A stretch of 51,191 nt of DNA from an uncultured Myxococcales bacterium (GTDB taxonomy: Bacteria > Myxococcota_A > UBA9042), in the NCBI GenBank assembly GCA_903842345.1, contig CAIMLR010000029.1:1-51191 (forward strand), written 5' to 3'. Below the pieces are notes generated by a model. It did not search any database and was not told the DNA's origin. It saw only the letters and a program-made list of their open reading frames with translations. Position 1 is the first letter of the stretch. Each line of letters starts with the position of its first letter. This document shows, piece after piece, positions 96 to 11,254 of the stretch. Made by a program: the position numbers and the translations under genes.

Positions 96-1082
96 TCAGG
101 CGGCAAGAATGCGGTGCGGACTTCGGGCTTGGCGTACTAGGTGGATGGCCGGGCTGAAGTACGTGAGAATTTCCCGCCACGAACTGTCGTCGCGGGCGCT
201 GCCACGGTGACATTCGTCAATGACGATGAGGTCGAAGAAGTCTGGGCTGAACTGCCTGTAGATGTTGTCTTCTTCTTCGGATCCGGTGACTGCTTGGTAC
301 AGGGCAAGGTAGACCTCAAAGGACTTGTCCACCTTGCCGTTGCTGACCTTGGTCATCGCGGGACCGAACGGCTTGAAGTCGCCGGTCTTGGTCTGGTCCG
401 TCAAAATGTTCCGGTCCGCCAAGAACAGCACCCGCTTGACCGCCTTGAACTTCCAGAGCCGCCAGATGATTTGGAACGCCGTGTAGGTTTTGCCGGTGCC
501 AGTGGCCATCGTCAGCAGGATGCGTCGCTCCCCTCGGGCAACGGCTTCCACGGCACGCTGAATAGCAATTCGCTGGTAGTAGCGAGGTTCGCGGCCCTTG
601 CCGTCGTCGTGATACGCAGATCGGGCCAGCTTGTCCGTTTCGTCGTTCAGGCCCTTCCACTTGCGGTACATCGACCACAAAATTGCAGGCGACGGGAACT
701 GCTCCAATGTCAGTACCTGCTCCTTGGGCGTGGACTGGCCGGTCCTGTCGTGGAAGATGAACCCGTCGCCGTTGCTACTGAAGACGAACGGCACGTCCAA
801 CGTCACCGCGTAGTCGATGGCTTGCCCAGTGCCTCCACCAATTGGGTGGTTGTTGTCCTTGGCCTCGACGACTGCGAGGGGCAAATTTGCTTGGTAGAAC
901 AAGACGTAATCCGCACGCTTGCCCTTGCCCCGTTTGGCAATTTTGCCACGGACGATGACCTTGCCGTCGGTGAAGTAGTGTTCACGGCGGATCTGCGTGG
1001 TCTTGTCCCAGCCCGCCGTCACGATGGCAGGCGTGATGAACTGGTCGCAGATGTCGGTTTCTGTCAGCAACTTCTTGGACAT
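96..1082 (-). pseudogene. hsdR: Type I restriction HsdR subunit, 3'-truncated
   Basis: HsdR subunits cleave and translocate DNA in type I restriction-modification complexes. The ATG at 1082 gives the family-typical start ([20 protein letters not shown], then AGWD); the ATG at 1109 is less likely. Visible parts are an N-terminal PD-(D/E)xK nuclease (about D58, E73 and K75, in RADYVLFY and VVEAKD), a linker, Walker A TGTGKT near 194-199 and the Walker B/DEAD-type box DECH near 289-292. Complete members have roughly 800-1,000 residues; this one has 328. Homology stops after FSPAIHL at about nt 138, where the family normally continues with the TATP helicase motif. The last 13 residues before the stop look foreign. 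It is the last gene of the operon and starts 41 nt after the RT stop. No hsdS is visible. As it stands it lacks most of the helicase and is probably inactive. Confidence 0.85.
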
Positions 1083-1123
1083 CGCCCCGCCGAGACCAGT
1101 GCCTGCCACCGGTGGCGTCGGTT

Positions 1124-3559
1124 CTACTCTGCGGCGGATGACGGGTCAACGCGAGGTCCGGTGACGTGAACGACGGCAGGCGGAAGGCATGATGGTACTG
1201 CGGGTTGCATGACCGCTGGCTTCGTACTTGAAAGCGGAAGCGGCACGCCGACCACGTAGCGCCCCTGAACCGCCCATGACCAATTGGCAGTCAGCTCCTC
1301 CACGGCATCGTGCATCAGCACCAGACGCGGATTCGTCCTTTCCGCCAGAAGCTTGGCGACATGAAGCAGCCCAATGGCTTTGACGGCAACTGTGCTCTCG
1401 CGGTGGCCTTGCAGAGCCCATGCCAGTCCCGCAAGCACACCCGCAACGTCCGAAGGCCCCGCAACAGGCACGCGGGCGTTGTATGCGCCGTCACGGTTGT
1501 TCAGCCGAAATCGGTACTGGCCCAGTGCCCGGCTTGTCCGTGTCCCGGACAGCACGACGACACCGGCGTCAGGTTTAGCCGACGGAATGCCTTGCCTTCT
1601 GGACCGCAACGCCACGACACGCTTCAACACCACCTGCACGGAGCCGTCATCCAGCCCCCGATCGGCTTCACGCAGGTACAGCTTGTCGTTTGCACCGCCA
1701 AGGATCGCGGTGCTGGCCATGGCGGCAGACATCGGGTTGAAGATGACCGTGGCACGGTTCCGCTGCCGAACCAATCGCACCAGTCCGTTCACCGTGCCGT
1801 TGACCACCGCCATGTTGTCCTTGGCAGCGCCCAGCGCCGTGTCCAGCTCACGCAAGTCCAAGATGCTGCCTTTGTAGCTGTCGCCCAGCCTAAAACCCTT
1901 GTTGCCCTGAAGGGCTTCTTGGACGCGGGCATCAAGAAGTGACAGTCGGTCGGGCGGGTGGAATTTCCCCGCCCGACCGCTGACACAGGGTGTGTTACGC
2001 CCTTCGGCTTCGGTGTTCTTCCTTGCTTTTGTACTTGGAATTTTACCGGCCTGTTTGCCAAGGGAAGGCACTGCAACGAAGGAAGAAACAACCAACGGTT
2101 CACCAAGGACACCGTCAGTAGGTTCATTATCGTCACGGGAAGGGTATAGAACGACATGGAGTTCGTCTTTGTCCCCATCCACGTAGTAGCAGGTGCCAGT
2201 AGTAGCCACATCAAGCCCAAGGTCAGGCTTATCGCCCAGACCGTGGAACCCTCGGTGTTGCTCACCTTCCAGACGGAAGGTGAGCTGGCTGTCATCAGGA
2301 CCATCACCCAAGCGGGGAAGGCCCACGTCCCCGGTGGAGAGGCGGTGATCACGCACCGCACGCCCAACGGTGGCGTTCGTGTCCGGGCTCTTCATCGGTT
2401 GCAGCCGAATCAGCCCAGCGTTCTTTTTGCGATTTGCAGACTTAGTCAGGGCCTGACAGCCCACGGCGTCACGTAGTTTGCCGATGGTCATGCCTTGGTG
2501 GATGACCTTCTCGTCCATGGCGGCGACGACCTTTGCAGGTTTCAGAGCGATGCCGGTGCGGTTGATCAGGTAGGTCTTCAGCACCGGCACGAACTCGACA
2601 TCGGTATTGATGATGCGGCTTGCCTTGCTGTCTGTGTCCCCGTCCAGCATCAGGGGGCGGACGTTGTCGAACCCACGGGAATTCGCCGATTGGCAGAAAG
2701 TTCCAAACGCCTTCCGTGCCTTTTCGTCCGTACTTGCAAGTAGATAGATGTCATCCAGATAGGCAATGGCGATGACCTGACCGTCGCCCGCAGCCGTCTT
2801 CAGCACCGGGGCCAAAACCAAGTTCATGACCGAGGCGGACAACTGGTTGCCCTGTTCGATGCCCTTACCGGCTTGGGTGCGGATCGGACCGTTCCTGTCG
2901 ATGGCGTCGATTCGCACCAATCGCAACACCCAACGTGCAGCCGCCATGTCCAAGCCGATGTCCTGCATTGCCTTGACGACTGCCTTGTGCGGCACCTGCC
3001 CAAACGCGTCGGCAAGGTCTGTCAGCACGACATGCCGGTGTCCGGTCCAAATTCCGTCGTAGATGGCCCGTGCCGTATGATCCTGTGAAGTTGCACCTTC
3101 CTTGTCGCAGGTCTTCTTGATCTTGTCCGCGTTGCGACCACCGTATTGGCCGGTGGTCAGATTCGCTTCGATGCGGGCGTCCAGTAGACGCCGGACATGT
3201 AGCAAGAGCAGACGCTTGAACTCGCACGGGTCGTCAATTGGGCGGGTGCCCTTGCTGGGGTCAAGTTCGTCTTTTTGGACCAAACTTCGCCAGCTTGGCG
3301 GGATCTGAAAGGGGTCAGCCCATGCCCTTGCAGCGAACGCATCGAAGAAGGCCACGCCCTTGTCGAAATCAAGCAATTGGGCTTGGTTCTGGATGAGCCG
3401 CTTGGACAGCCCTTCAGCGTCACGGCGATCCGGATTCCGGCGTCCGTGTATGCCGAACGACCGCATGGCGGGGTCACCAGACGTGCTGCCGTAGGCGACC
3501 TGCTGCAGGTCCTTCGCAGAAGGCAACAGGTCACCGATCGTGAGCAAGGGCGGCTTCAT
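1124..3559 (-). CDS. Reverse transcriptase with long C-terminal extension
   Basis: An 811-aa protein. RT hallmarks are visible: finger motif [13 protein letters not shown] near 106-118, catalytic motif A TDLADAF with Asp near 181, motif [12 protein letters not shown] near 233-243, and motif C YLDD near 267-270 in place of the commoner YADD or YMDD. A thumb-like stretch follows to about 340. The remaining roughly 450 residues match no domain I can name; alternating strand/helix character is seen near 590-760 (for example [18 protein letters not shown]). The ATG at 3559 overlaps the upstream gene's stop by 4 nt (ATGA), implying translational coupling. It has no maturase domain that I can see, no retron-like ncRNA could fit at its 5' side, and it is about twice the length of diversity-generating RTs. 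RT activity is well supported. A defence role is inferred from the neighbouring hsdR and methyltransferase-like genes. Confidence 0.85.
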
Positions 3560-4827
3560 ACGGGCGCTCCGTCAACGTGACGCCAAACGGTCAAGATCCG
3601 TTCGGTTGGCCGGACGCAGCCGTAGACGCCCCAGACCTTGCTGTCGTAGCCGAAGCTGGCGTGGGGGAGCCGACGATCGGGATCGACATCGACCTGTTGG
3701 AGCTGGTCACCGATGGCATCTTTGGCGACGTGGAACTGCCCGGAAGCCACGTCCGTCAGCAGCACCAGTACGCCACCGGGCTTCAGCTTGTCGATCCCGT
3801 ACTGGACCGCACGCACACAGTCCTTTCCATCGTTTGGGGTTGACCAGTTCCAGTACACGTCGTTTTCCTTGCGGTTCATCGTGGGCAGATTCTGCAAGTG
3901 CCGCTGCACATTGTCCCAAACAAAGGCACCTGCGGCGGGGCCGGGGACGTTGACCACGACGGCGTCAAATTGGGCGGGCCGGTTGTCGGCGATGTTGCAG
4001 GGGCCGTGGAACTGCGAGGTCGTGAACACCCGGAACTCTGGCAAAAAGACGGACAGTGCCTGTGCGGCAACGCTGTGTCCCAGATCCACGCCAAGCAGAG
4101 TGGGCTTGTCCTGTTCTGCGAGCAGAATCTGCCGGAACCGGCCACGTTCAACAGCGTTGTCGATGATGCTGGCTGCAGTGCGAACAGCGGCGACTGGTGG
4201 GCGAAGCGGGTCCATCGCCCACGGGTAGGTCAGTGTCAGCCCGCAGTATGGCTCGGTGCTGCTGTAGTTGGCCACGAACTTGAGGTCGTACTTGTCCGTG
4301 TTGATCCGGAGCTGGTCAAGATCACGGACGCGGATCGGCAGGTTGAATCCGTCCGGGCACGGATAGCAGCGCTGCCCAGTGCCCTTCCAGTCCCAGACAG
4401 TGGGGGCCGGGGTCACGATCGCCGCCGCAACCTTGAACCGGAAGACGCGGTCAAAGGCCACTTCAACGGCAGTTCTGGCAACCACAGCGGGGTTGCGTTC
4501 CTGAGACCCGTTGATCACGCCGACGGCATGGCCCATTGCGATCTCCAACAATATCCATCGGTCCAACCCGTTCTGGTCCACGGTGCCTGACCACCGTGGC
4601 GGGAACACGCGTTGGGCTTCTCGCTGCATGTCGGCCTTGACCAAGTCCACAACCCTTGCAGATGACTGGTCATCCACATGGAACGCAGCCATGAAACCCG
4701 TGCCGCGCAAGCAATCCATGGCGTCGTGGGCGGCACGCCAGATGTTGTCGTTGACCTTGCTGTCGTCGCCAATTGGGCCATCTCCCTTGTAGTACGAGGG
4801 GTTGGGCGCGGTCGGAATGCTAAGCAT
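3556..4827 (-). CDS. Putative SAM-dependent methyltransferase-like protein
   Basis: A 423-aa protein. The second half has a Rossmann methyltransferase pattern: TLLGVDLGHS (motif I region) near 240-250, FDAVVVNVPGP at the position of the NPPY-type catalytic motif, and LKPGGVLVLLTD as a late strand/turn. NVPGP is a poor match to NPPY/DPPY, so catalysis or target base is uncertain. The N-terminal 200 residues are unassigned. It sits second in the operon, overlapping the HTH gene by 8 nt and the RT gene by 4 nt. In an R-M setting it would be the self-marking enzyme, but it does not look like a classical HsdM and no HsdS follows. The fold call is reasonable; function is inferred. Confidence 0.55.
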   Translation of the reverse strand: MLSIPTAPNPSYYKGDGPIGDDSKVNDNIWRAAHDAMDCLRGTGFMAAFHVDDQSSARVVDLVKADMQREAQRVFPPRWSGTVDQNGLDRWILLEIAMGHAVGVINGSQERNPAVVARTAVEVAFDRVFRFKVAAAIVTPAPTVWDWKGTGQRCYPCPDGFNLPIRVRDLDQLRINTDKYDLKFVANYSSTEPYCGLTLTYPWAMDPLRPPVAAVRTAASIIDNAVERGRFRQILLAEQDKPTLLGVDLGHSVAAQALSVFLPEFRVFTTSQFHGPCNIADNRPAQFDAVVVNVPGPAAGAFVWDNVQRHLQNLPTMNRKENDVYWNWSTPNDGKDCVRAVQYGIDKLKPGGVLVLLTDVASGQFHVAKDAIGDQLQQVDVDPDRRLPHASFGYDSKVWGVYGCVRPTERILTVWRHVDGAPV

Positions 4828-5032
4828 GGGACGCCCCCAGTTCAGCCAATGCTTCCACGACCTGAACAGCGTTGTAGCGGGGCAGCCGCCCCACCCAGAT
4901 GGTGGGAATCGTCGCGGACGCGGTCAGCCGCTGAACCGTTTTGCGGGAAACCCCAAGATGTTCAGCAAGCTGGGTCTGGGACATCAACCTGTTGCTGTTG
5001 TCGTCGTGGCAGTGAGTCTGGTTGTTCTTCAT
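4820..5032 (-). CDS. Small helix-turn-helix DNA-binding protein, first gene of the RT operon
   Basis: A 70-aa protein with one helix-turn-helix: QTQLAEHLGVSRKTVQRLTA followed by the wing-like IPTIWVGRLPRYN. This is the MerR/excisionase-like pattern. An AGGAG sequence lies about 8 nt before the ATG at 5032. Its stop overlaps the start of the methyltransferase-like gene, so it leads the four-gene operon and is the obvious candidate for its autoregulator. It faces a second small HTH gene (5509-5718) across a 476-nt intergenic region. An alternative role is as a recombination directionality factor for the island. Confidence 0.8.
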   Translation of the reverse strand: MKNNQTHCHDDNSNRLMSQTQLAEHLGVSRKTVQRLTASATIPTIWVGRLPRYNAVQVVEALAELGASHA

Positions 5033-7456: not shown

Positions 7457-8392
7457 CTACCGTTCCGGCCCCGTCAGCAACGACGCCAAGACGTGCGTTG
7501 CCGGATTTGCCAACGATTGCCGATGGCTGTCATACCTGCGGGTAGTTCGGGGATCGGCGTGACGGGCAAAATCCTGAACAAGATGAAGAGCTACACCGCC
7601 CTTCAGGGCCTCCGTGACCGCCGTGTGCCGCAAGAGGTGCGGGTGAATCTTGCGGACGATGTCTGCCTGAAGTGCCAGTCGTTGCAATCGCTTCCACGCA
7701 GCTTGCTGCGAAATCGCACTCCCGTGAACTGCGACATCTCCCTTGTTGACGCCGATGAAGATCGGGCCGGAGCTGATGTTGGCAGCAGTCATCCAAGTCT
7801 GCACGGCTGTCCATGTCGGTGCAGCCAACGGCACGCGAGCAGTCTTGCGGCCCTTGCCGACAATTGTGGCGACCTTGTGACCGCCTTCTTCCGCAAGGTC
7901 ATGGACCTGAAGACCAAGTGCCTCGGAAATTCTCCAACCTTGCAACGCCAAGCACGTCATCAGCGCCCGATCCCGAAGTCCGGACAGGGTCGTGGCGTCC
8001 GGGGCGTCAATCAACAACCGCACTTCGTTGGCAGTCAGGGCCAACCGGGGCGACACGTCCGACACTTTCGGCCTGCGTGCCCGTGCCGCCGGGTTCTTGT
8101 CCAGCTTGTCGTCATCGACGGCGAAATCGTAGAAGCCGTTCAAGGCAGAAAGCACCTTGGCGATGGTGGAAGGCTTGCGGCCCGCAGCCTCAAGATGTGC
8201 CCGGTACGCTTCAACGTCACGGCGGCTCACGGCAAGCAGATCCATCGTGCCGATGAAATCGTCGAACGCGGCAATCGCCTGACGGTAGACGGTGCGGGTG
8301 GCGATGGACGGCAGCCCCTGCAGGTAGGCATCCACGACGGACACCAGCTCCTGCGGGAAGCTGACGATTTGGGCGTTCTTGGAGCTGGTCAT
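7457..8392 (-). CDS. Tyrosine recombinase (XerC/XerD-like integrase)
   Basis: A 311-aa protein from the ATG at 8392 (MTSSKNAQIVSF); a TTG at 8443 would add 17 residues. The N-terminal SAM-like core-binding domain spans about 15-105 and the catalytic domain about 110-311. Catalytic residues are visible: Arg near 154 in GWRISEALG, Lys near 181 in GKGRK, HLLR near 252-255, His near 278 in ARHADPRTT, and nucleophile Tyr near 287 in RRYD. The set is complete, so it is probably active. It performs site-specific strand exchange, presumably integration or excision of this island or an embedded element. Its location well inside the island means it need not be the enzyme that used the tRNA-Arg site. 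Confidence 0.9.
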   Translation of the reverse strand: MTSSKNAQIVSFPQELVSVVDAYLQGLPSIATRTVYRQAIAAFDDFIGTMDLLAVSRRDVEAYRAHLEAAGRKPSTIAKVLSALNGFYDFAVDDDKLDKNPAARARRPKVSDVSPRLALTANEVRLLIDAPDATTLSGLRDRALMTCLALQGWRISEALGLQVHDLAEEGGHKVATIVGKGRKTARVPLAAPTWTAVQTWMTAANISSGPIFIGVNKGDVAVHGSAISQQAAWKRLQRLALQADIVRKIHPHLLRHTAVTEALKGGVALHLVQDFARHADPRTTRRYDSHRQSLANPATHVLASLLTGPER

Positions 8393-8725
8393 CTTGGGCA
8401 CCGGCGTCTGAGGTTGCGGTTGTTGGAACTGGCATTCCAACAACCCTATCTACGCCCGGATCCGGGGATGTAAGTCGGGCTTTCCGGACGGGGCAAACCG
8501 GCTTGACGGCGACTGACCGCCGGGAGGATCTTGGAGCTGGCCAATTGGGGGGCCTCCTGAAACCGTGCCAGCATCGAAAACAGCAGATGTCGTCGGAGAC
8601 CTACTTGCGACATCGATCGCCGGGGCCAACGACGTTGCCGCCAGCACCCTTGCCAATCGGTATCCGTTCCGGCCAGTGGCTCATGAAGCACGTGTTCAGA
8701 TGTGACGCCGGCCTCCGTTCACCGT
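8393..8725. other. Intergenic, no gene seen
   Basis: This lies between the start of the recombinase and the end of the next minus-strand gene. I see no credible coding sequence, tRNA or clear repeat. It should contain the recombinase promoter and possibly recombinase binding sites, which cannot be located by eye. Confidence 0.4.
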
Positions 8726-9422: not shown

Positions 9423-9974
9423 ATGAAATCAGTAGGTTTAGTGATAGTACAGGACACCAACAAGCCGATCTTACTGACGATGGCCGACCTTGCCCGGAAG
9501 CTTGGCGTGACGAAGCGGACCATTGCCCGCTGGGTGCTGGATGGTCAGGCGAAGCCGGGCCGTGTGACGGGAGATGTTCGGGCCGGGACGTGGATCCCGA
9601 AGCCAGACGGCAAGCTCGGTCGCACCTGCTTTTGGTTGAAGTCCAAGGACTTGGACAGGCACCTTGCGAAAATCAAGGCACGGCAGAACCGGCGAAACGA
9701 GGACAAGGCGATCTACGGCACTGCAACCATGACCACTGCGGAAATCGCCAGCTACTTGGGGGTGTCAGGCAAGTCGATCCAGCGGTACGTGCTCAAAGGG
9801 CAGGAACGCCTGCTATGGGAACCGGCTTTCCGGGACAATCCCCGCCTACGCTGGTTGCCCGAACCTGACCATCGAACGCCGACAGGCAACCTTTGGGACG
9901 TGGTCCCTGAACTCCGCAACCAGCTTGCGGTGTTGAAGGCGTTGCTGAATGCCGATCTTGTGAAGTCGACGTAG
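9423..9974 (+). CDS. Regulator with two helix-turn-helix units
   Basis: A 183-aa protein containing two separate MerR/excisionase-type HTH units: LTMADLARKLGVTKRTIARW near 18-37 and MTTAEIASYLGVSGKSIQRY near 100-119, each followed by a basic or aromatic wing. The repeat suggests internal duplication, so one chain could bind a bipartite operator. No strong ribosome binding site precedes the ATG at 9423. It is transcribed away from the minus-strand GNAT-like gene. Likely a DNA-binding regulator of the island; the target is unknown. Confidence 0.7.
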   Translation: MKSVGLVIVQDTNKPILLTMADLARKLGVTKRTIARWVLDGQAKPGRVTGDVRAGTWIPKPDGKLGRTCFWLKSKDLDRHLAKIKARQNRRNEDKAIYGTATMTTAEIASYLGVSGKSIQRYVLKGQERLLWEPAFRDNPRLRWLPEPDHRTPTGNLWDVVPELRNQLAVLKALLNADLVKST

Positions 9975-10159: not shown

Positions 10160-11254
10160 TTACGGGTTGCCTTGGTCACTGGCCGGTCCATGCCGACGAA
10201 ATCGTGCAACTTCCGCCTTCAGCATCGCAGTCACGGCGGGGTCGTCCGTCAGCCGGGGCGGGTCACGCACAGCCTCGATGATGCGGAACTCCTTATGTGA
10301 GACGGCCATCTGCTGCACGGGAATCCCACGTTCCCCAGCAATTTCGCCTATTTTTGCTGCATCGGCGGCAGAGATTCTGGCCCCAAGCAGCACCCGCGAC
10401 GGTTTGGGAACGCCCCAGAAGCCTTCATGTTGAATGCCGGGCGGCATGATGTACCGCCACTCCCGTTCATAGGACCAGTGGTGCGATTTGGTCATCGCGG
10501 CAACGATCATATGAATCCCGTCGCCGACGCTCGGGAAACTGTCGTCATCGGCTGAAGCGTGAATTTCTTTTTCAATCGCCTCTGAGATGAACCGCGTCGC
10601 GTCAAACAGCGAGTCCGTGTAGGCCACAGGGAACAGGACCTTCCTCTGCATGTGGCTGCGGTCCACCGTTCCGAACGGGTACTCGACGCAGAAGCCAGTG
10701 TGCCTGTCGGCGTAGTGTCCCCACATCAAGGCGTTGTCTGCTTCCGGCGTGAATGAGCAGATCCGAGTCTGTTGTTGAAGCAGTCTGGACCAGCGCAGAA
10801 CTTCTGGGCCCGCGAGCCCGTTCATGATCGTTCGAACGAAATCAACTGGATCGGCGTCCCAGTCGGGAACTTTGGCGATCATCAGGCGGGCAGCCGCCGC
10901 CATGGGGTCGGCCTCCTGTCTGCACGAGTTTACTTCGTCCGCCGTCAGGTACTGCCCGATTCCTTTCGCCATGACGGTGTCAAAATGACGAGTGATCAAC
11001 GGTCTCGTAACATCATGTACTGAATACGTAAATGCAGAATCAAACGGGTCGTTGTACCTCTCCGGCGAAGTCAGCCACACATGGTCGCCGCCGAGGGTTG
11101 CCAGCGACTCGCCTGAAACCTTGTAATATCTATAGAGATTGTCCGGAATTTTCGAATCTTTCAACAGGAGGGCACGCCCGATGTCTACCGCCTCGCCCCG
11201 TACGGGCAGCAGGCAGGAAATCAACTCGCCAATCCACGGCTCGGGAACGCCCAT
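10160..11254 (-). CDS. DUF2971 family protein
   Basis: A 364-aa protein. DUF2971 signatures appear in order: LYRYYKVS near 39-46, WLTSPERYNDPFDSAF near 59-74, ICSFTPEADNALMWGHYAD near 165-183, FCVEYPF, and YEREWRYI near 260. The family is common near phage-defence and mobile loci; its biochemical role is not established. It converges on the double-HTH gene, with a G-run near 10142-10150 between the two stops. Membership is secure, function open. Confidence 0.8.
   Translation of the reverse strand: MGVPEPWIGELISCLLPVRGEAVDIGRALLLKDSKIPDNLYRYYKVSGESLATLGGDHVWLTSPERYNDPFDSAFTYSVHDVTRPLITRHFDTVMAKGIGQYLTADEVNSCRQEADPMAAAARLMIAKVPDWDADPVDFVRTIMNGLAGPEVLRWSRLLQQQTRICSFTPEADNALMWGHYADRHTGFCVEYPFGTVDRSHMQRKVLFPVAYTDSLFDATRFISEAIEKEIHASADDDSFPSVGDGIHMIVAAMTKSHHWSYEREWRYIMPPGIQHEGFWGVPKPSRVLLGARISAADAAKIGEIAGERGIPVQQMAVSHKEFRIIEAVRDPPRLTDDPAVTAMLKAEVARFRRHGPASDQGNP

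What the first reader, a model, noticed from the sequence alone, without database searches (positions are those of the whole stretch)
1124..2540. RT with about 450 unassigned C-terminal residues
After the RT palm and thumb (to about residue 340) the protein continues with a long region of mixed alpha/beta character that matches neither maturase, HNH, nitrilase nor other partners that I can recognise. Fused effector domains define many RT defence subtypes.
Basis: partly seen in the sequence, partly recalled or inferred. Interest (0 to 1): 0.6.

Follow-up and report, generated by a model that had tools for sequence, protein, structure and literature searches.

The report
Reverse transcriptase gene with embedded RNA
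This bacterial reverse transcriptase belongs to a rare, apparently undescribed three-gene system in which the enzyme's own gene seems to carry, in frame between its polymerase and a new tail domain, a folded RNA element that may serve as the enzyme's guide or template.

Summary
The RT gene (1124-3559, minus strand, 811 aa) is real, and residues 340-811 match no known domain. They are not one domain. Residues ~386-538 are a hypervariable, predicted-disordered linker. Residues 539-~770 are a conserved alpha/beta domain of unknown family. The RT is the last gene of an overlapping operon: small DNA-binding protein, methyltransferase-fold protein, RT. I found four further loci with this order, all in Myxococcota. 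Three are full relatives; one is a distant branch whose second and tail proteins do not match by sequence. In all five the linker is the odd part: third-codon GC collapses, the frame stays open (120-540 codons), and it folds more strongly as RNA than every synonymous-codon shuffle, while the tail parts (and four of five RT parts) look ordinary. A GC-rich hairpin sits just before the tail domain in 5/5 (shuffle-significant in four). Best reading: an RT-RNA system, probably anti-phage, whose structured RNA is embedded inside the RT coding sequence rather than encoded beside it. That the RNA acts as a unit or template, and the defence role, are inferred. Only five members were found, so covariation could not be tested.

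The parts
2405..3559 (-). RT domain (fingers, palm, thumb), residues 1-385; catalytic aspartates D181 (3017-3019), D269/D270 (2750-2755)
   Evidence: RVT_1 E 4.9e-12; VIA-align Z 17.4 (rmsd 3.9, 268 aligned) to DGR RT 8ub7 and Z 16.9 to group II intron RT 5hhj, tied; aspartates invariant in five relatives; coordinates
1946..2404 (-). In-frame linker, residues 386-538: predicted disordered, hypervariable, proposed embedded structured RNA
   Evidence: GC3 drop; pLDDT mostly <31; fold energy below all 100 synonymous shuffles and beyond the lowest of 81 control segments; no second copy in the genome
1947..1979 (-). Terminal hairpin CGGTCGGGCGGG-GAAATTCCA-CCCGCCCGACCG (12 bp perfect; 18 bp with mismatches), ending 1 nt before the C-terminal domain
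   Evidence: (0 of 300 synonymous shuffles as strong)
2260..2285 (-). Internal perfect 11-bp hairpin GCTCACCTTCC-GTCT-GGAAGGTGAGC in the linker
1127..1945 (-). C-terminal domain (conserved part residues 539-~770), alpha/beta, no known family
   Evidence: alignment A5; AF2 secondary structure; no convincing Pfam match in any member (best 0.069 in one of four); no PDB sequence relative
3556..4827 (-). Methyltransferase-fold protein, 423 aa; stop overlaps the RT start by 4 bp (ATGA)
   Evidence: conserved upstream of the RT in L008, L009, L010; AF2 plus VIA-align Z 11.3, nearly all top rows SAM methyltransferases
4820..5032 (-). Small HTH_17 DNA-binding protein, 70 aa; overlaps the methyltransferase start
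   Evidence: Pfam HTH_17 E 5.8e-7; same position in L008 and L009; RHH_3 weakly in L048; RHH-like by eye in L010

Best explanation
This is a three-gene RT system: a small DNA-binding autoregulator, a methyltransferase-fold partner, and an RT fused to a new C-terminal domain. The segment of the mRNA between the RT and C-terminal codons folds into a structured RNA ending in a GC hairpin. Proposed mechanism: the RT (perhaps with its C-terminal domain) binds this RNA, in cis or after processing of the transcript, and uses it as scaffold and/or template for a cDNA. The RNA-cDNA-protein complex works with the methyltransferase-fold protein as sensor or modifier, most likely in anti-phage defence in the manner of retrons and ncRNA-templated DRTs. 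Shown here by computation: the operon, the domain layout, intact RT catalytic residues, RNA structure in the linker beyond synonymous expectation, and an open frame through it. Inferred: that the RNA is an RT ligand or template, that cDNA is made, what the partner does, and the defence role.
For: Gene order small DNA-binding protein / methyltransferase-like / RT, with short overlaps, in five loci. RT rows form one group, support 97/97, in a small tree with group II, Cas and retron RTs. The linker sense strand folds below 100/100 synonymous shuffles in the window, L008, L009 and L018 and below 50/50 in L010 (z -2.8, -2.7, -5.2, -2.6, -5.5). RT and tail parts of the four closer genes lie between z -1.2 and +0.9; L018 RT -2.2, tail +0.6. 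81 control coding segments: mean -0.2, minimum -2.7. Across the five operons the linker is the structured hotspot (mean z -1.76 against -0.14, -0.70 and -0.09 for MT, RT and tail). Sense z is lower than antisense in all five. GC3 falls in the linker. A terminal hairpin abuts the tail domain. Frames stay open: expected stops 5.3, 4.1, 3.8, 22.4, 5.7, observed 0. In L010 a 7-nt motif occurs 11 times, in all three frames, against 2.4 in synonymous shuffles.
Against: Only five members, too diverged in the linker for covariation. Window, L008 and L018 are individually modest, near the lowest control. No common fold beyond the terminal hairpin was established, and that hairpin is imperfect in L010 (75 of 300 shuffles have a perfect hairpin as strong as its best). 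The L048 methyltransferase-like and tail proteins are not detectably homologous to the others. No transcript or cDNA data. An RNA cut from its own mRNA would cost the message.
Confidence: 0.5

Rival explanations
1. The linker RNA structure is cis-regulatory only: it paces or represses translation between two domains, or lets the RT autoregulate its own mRNA. The RT acts on some other template.
For: Structure lies exactly between two folded domains, with a strong hairpin at the domain boundary, as a ribosome-pausing element would.
Against: The segment is 360-1620 nt long (120-540 codons) with many hairpins and, in L010, repeated nucleotide motifs, more than a pause needs. An RT-primase gene with an inter-domain linker (L059) shows neither the GC3 drop nor the folding signal in its linker.
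Confidence: 0.25
2. An ordinary two-domain RT protein with a fast-evolving disordered linker; the RNA signal is a by-product of odd composition or of small palindromic insertions.
For: Linker is disordered and unconserved; low-complexity linkers may lose codon bias; three of five z-scores are modest.
Against: Synonymous shuffles keep amino acids and codon usage, and no shuffle reaches the observed energy in any of five genes. No other copy of the linker or its hairpins in the window's genome, against a palindromic repeat family. Same pattern in a distant branch.
Confidence: 0.2
3. The linker is the template repeat of a diversity-generating retroelement or a self-splicing intron.
For: RT core is closest in fold to DGR and group II RTs.
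Against: No second copy (variable repeat) in the genome, which is ~96% complete; no Rfam intron match in window or relatives; the frame stays open in all five, which splicing would not require.
Confidence: 0.03

Closest known systems
DRT2, DRT9 and DRT10 (class 2 UG RTs with ncRNA templates; PMC12632851, PMC12483538)
   Same: RT paired with a structured RNA; likely cDNA product; defence-like setting
   Different: There the RNA is a noncoding RNA partner; here it lies inside the RT coding frame. PADLOC UG models match only the RT core.
Retrons
   Same: RT plus structured RNA plus partner protein
   Different: Tree places the clade away from the one retron RT included; retron models match weakly or not at all; no structured RNA common to the regions upstream of the operons
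Group II intron and CRISPR-associated RTs
   Same: Closest by sequence profile: GsI-IIC RT E 2.9e-10, Cas6-RT-Cas1 E 3.7e-8
   Different: No maturase or HNH domain found, no intron RNA found, no cas genes seen beside it; operon with methyltransferase-fold protein
Mad2 of MADS and other methyltransferases
   Same: The partner has the same general fold (PADLOC mad2 E 3e-4 for the window protein only; VIA Z ~11)
   Different: No classical DNA-methyltransferase catalytic motif is conserved; no Pfam match; may be a non-catalytic SAM-fold protein

Membership tests
Reverse transcriptase | RVT_1 core with catalytic aspartates | tested here: met
   E 4.9e-12; D181, D269, D270 invariant in five
DRT / UG RT (types modelled in PADLOC 2023) | Whole-protein match to a UG-type model | tested here: not met
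   Best UG4 E 9e-9 covers only residues 153-298; same for relatives. Types described after 2023 not tested
DRT / UG RT | Anti-phage activity | not testable with these tools
   Needs a plaque assay in a laboratory strain
Retron | msr-msd ncRNA upstream of the RT | tested here: inconclusive
   No shared structured region upstream of the operons; no Rfam match, which does not exclude an unmodelled one
Retron | Retron-clade RT | tested here: inconclusive
   Separate from the single retron RT in a 26-row tree; few references
Group II intron maturase | X/maturase domain and intron RNA | tested here: not met
   No Pfam maturase match; no intron RNA in Rfam search
Diversity-generating retroelement | Template repeat (here: the linker) with a variable repeat copy | tested here: not met
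   No second copy of the linker in the genome; template repeats elsewhere not tested
RT-ncRNA system | Structured RNA genetically linked to the RT | tested here: met
   Synonymous-shuffle and control tests; statistical, not experimental
RT-ncRNA system | RNA binds the RT and templates DNA | not testable with these tools
   Needs RNA and cDNA sequencing of the complex
SAM methyltransferase | Class I Rossmann methyltransferase fold | tested here: met
   AF2 (mean pLDDT 51.7; C-terminal core up to 87) and VIA-align Z 11.3, rmsd 3.1, 147 aligned
SAM methyltransferase | Conserved catalytic motif | tested here: inconclusive
   N-[VLI]-[PA] after strand 4 with invariant N293, no classical NPPY

The most novel reading that the evidence does not exclude
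A class of bacterial RT systems in which the template RNA is encoded inside the RT's own open reading frame, so that one transcript is both message and reverse-transcription template, partnered with a methyltransferase-fold protein.
Probability: 0.35. Interest if true: 0.9.

Novelty: new variant of a known kind. Interest (0 to 1): 0.7.

Why it matters
In the RT-RNA immune systems I know of, the RNA is encoded beside the RT gene. A template built into the RT's own reading frame would be a new genetic layout, would explain why ncRNA searches in intergenic regions could miss the RNA of some orphan RTs, and gives a simple search rule: an in-frame, low-GC3, strongly folded linker between RT and tail domains. 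It also adds a methyltransferase-fold protein as a conserved RT partner.

Tried and rejected
Searches with the single RT sequence in genome contigs, viral contigs, phages and plasmids found no full relative; searching with the partner protein did. Viral scans with the partner, branch B and merged RT alignments were empty. Two searches of 318 genomes each, centred on G188 and G109 (apparently one and the same further Myxococcota class), gave no member. The hits L002, L003 and L059 are CRISPR-type RT-primase proteins, and most of L019-L023, L054-L057 and L060 look like group II type RTs; those read lack a low-GC3 folded linker (some of them, as intron-borne genes, show scattered folding signals elsewhere). 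DGR template repeat rejected for the linker. Rfam gave nothing usable. HsdR downstream is not conserved as a partner. A broad RT tree with all described RT classes was not possible.

Full report
OBSERVATION. The minus-strand ORF 1124-3559 encodes 811 aa. Pfam finds only RVT_1 (residues 122-296, E 4.9e-12). NCBIfam, PHROGs and PADLOC match only the RT core.

FINDING RELATIVES. The RT alone found no full relative in genome, viral, phage or plasmid collections. The gene directly upstream (3556-4827, 423 aa, overlapping the RT start by 4 bp) did: in 379 genomes of the phylum it matched three others, and each has an RT of this type directly downstream (L008 E 2.5e-104, L010 1.1e-45, L009 4.8e-26). 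A profile of the four RT domains recovered the same three in the GTDB genome contigs, all titled Myxococcota or Myxococcales. The same profile gave a weaker hit, L018/L048 (hmmsearch 2e-20; hhalign probability 97.6, E 4e-12), which I call branch B. In a 26-row tree with group II, Cas and retron RTs the five form one group (97/97), though branches are long and references few.

OPERON. Upstream of the methyltransferase-like gene lies a small DNA-binding protein: HTH_17 in the window (4820-5032), L008 and L009. L010 has a small protein at 9641-9829 that looks ribbon-helix-helix by eye (no Pfam match). L048 has a weak RHH_3 match (E 5e-4). In L048 the order is RHH, a 290-aa protein, RT, with 4-bp overlaps. 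The middle protein of the window family has a class I methyltransferase fold (AF2; VIA-align Z 11.3 and nearly all top rows methyltransferases). The L048 protein is not detectably homologous by profile; I regard it as methyltransferase-like from its apparent strand pattern and a matching FDLIHLHLPCPG / FDAVVVNVPGPA motif, which is inference. HsdR downstream in the window is not conserved elsewhere. Every locus has a site-specific recombinase within ~1-7 kb, and several have restriction or effector-like genes nearby, so a mobile, defence-rich setting is likely.

ANATOMY OF THE C-TERMINAL REGION. Alignment of the four full relatives and the AF2 model (low overall confidence) divide it in two: a linker (386-538) that varies from ~150 to ~540 aa and has no predicted structure, and a conserved alpha/beta domain (539-~770) without Pfam or PDB sequence relatives. 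The RT core is closest in fold to DGR and group II intron RTs (Z ~17, tied) and by profile to group II, Cas6-RT-Cas1 and R2 RTs.

RNA IN THE LINKER. Four tests agree. (1) Codon bias: GC3 falls from roughly 0.65-1.0 to roughly 0.3-0.75 in the linker in all four, and in branch B from ~0.56 to 0.24-0.40. (2) Local fold energy compared with synonymous-codon shuffles, which keep protein and codon usage: with 100 shuffles (50 for L010) the linker lies below every shuffle in all five genes, z -2.8 (window), -2.7 (L008), -5.2 (L009), -5.5 (L010), -2.6 (L018), and sense is always lower than antisense. With 30 shuffles the first four gave -3.15, -3.15, -5.77 and -6.18, and their RT and tail parts gave -1.2 to +0.9; L018 gave -5.26 over a slightly longer segment, RT -2.2, tail +0.55. 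81 control 480-nt coding segments from the same loci: mean -0.22, sd 1.16, minimum -2.69. So L009 and L010 are clear outliers; window, L008 and L018 sit at the control extreme. (3) Dinucleotide-shuffle scan of the whole operons: linker mean z -1.76 against -0.14 (MT), -0.70 (RT), -0.09 (tail), Mann-Whitney p 1.4e-10 (windows overlap, so this overstates); the upstream region has no comparable shared signal. (4) A GC-rich hairpin directly before the tail domain: window 12 bp perfect, L009 13 bp, L008 8 bp, L018 9 bp, reached by 0, 0, 1 and 4 of 300 shuffles; L010 has an imperfect 13-bp hairpin there that the perfect-stem test does not score (75 of 300). Loops are 9-12 nt and the G-rich strand is 5' in all. 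The linker boundaries were set by me from the alignment before the shuffle tests, but the idea was prompted by the same data, so an independent set of relatives is needed.

THE LINKER IS STILL IN FRAME. No stop occurs in any of the five linkers although composition predicts 4-22 (chance of openness 2e-2 to 1e-10 each). So it is very probably translated, and RNA and protein functions overlap. In L010 the motif GAAYTRT occurs 11 times, in all three frames, against 2.4 in synonymous shuffles, a nucleotide-level repeat.

MECHANISM. I propose that the RT (and perhaps its tail domain) binds the linker RNA and uses it as scaffold or template, and that the complex works with the methyltransferase-fold protein, probably in defence. 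Supporting facts: intact RT catalytic aspartates, tight operon, RNA structure fixed next to the RT domain, defence-rich setting. What is not shown: transcription of a discrete RNA, RT binding, cDNA, partner chemistry, phenotype. The main rival is a purely cis-regulatory structure in the mRNA.

NOVELTY. Described ncRNA-templated DRTs use a noncoding RNA partner (PMC12632851, PMC12483538). I found no description of an RT whose RNA lies inside its own frame in the papers searched, but the library is partial and I searched by words only. I file it as a new variant of the RT-ncRNA kind; if the embedded RNA proves to be the template it would be more than that.

Noticed in passing
window 96-1109 (-): N-terminal part of an EcoAI-type HsdR (E 1e-146) starts 14 nt after the RT stop. 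The homology breaks near position 140 and no reading frame continues it to the contig edge, so the gene is interrupted.
   Followed up: partly
window 10160-11254 (-): DUF2971 protein matching the PADLOC candidate defence family PDC-S31 (E 2.7e-42).
   Followed up: no
window 7457-8443 (-); L008 5957-6571; L009 3827-4456; L010 16319-18451; L048 11344-12324: A site-specific recombinase lies within about 1-7 kb of the RT operon in all five loci (L009 one judged from sequence only).
   Followed up: partly
L010 5915-7490 (-): Linker of 540 codons with 11 copies of GAAYTRT often followed by GGAGRNGA, read in different frames; looks like an expanded nucleotide-level repeat.
   Followed up: partly
L043 (G000:C15:6672-7277): The same genome also carries a retron type II-A RT (PADLOC E 8e-84).
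   Followed up: no
L008 6592-7488 (-): HNH effector-like protein (CBASS-type effector models) near the RT operon of L008.
   Followed up: no
L003 463-1077: Apparent CRISPR-like repeat array beside an RT-primase type protein in a related genome (repeating SQSPLHRGGSS in translation).
   Followed up: no
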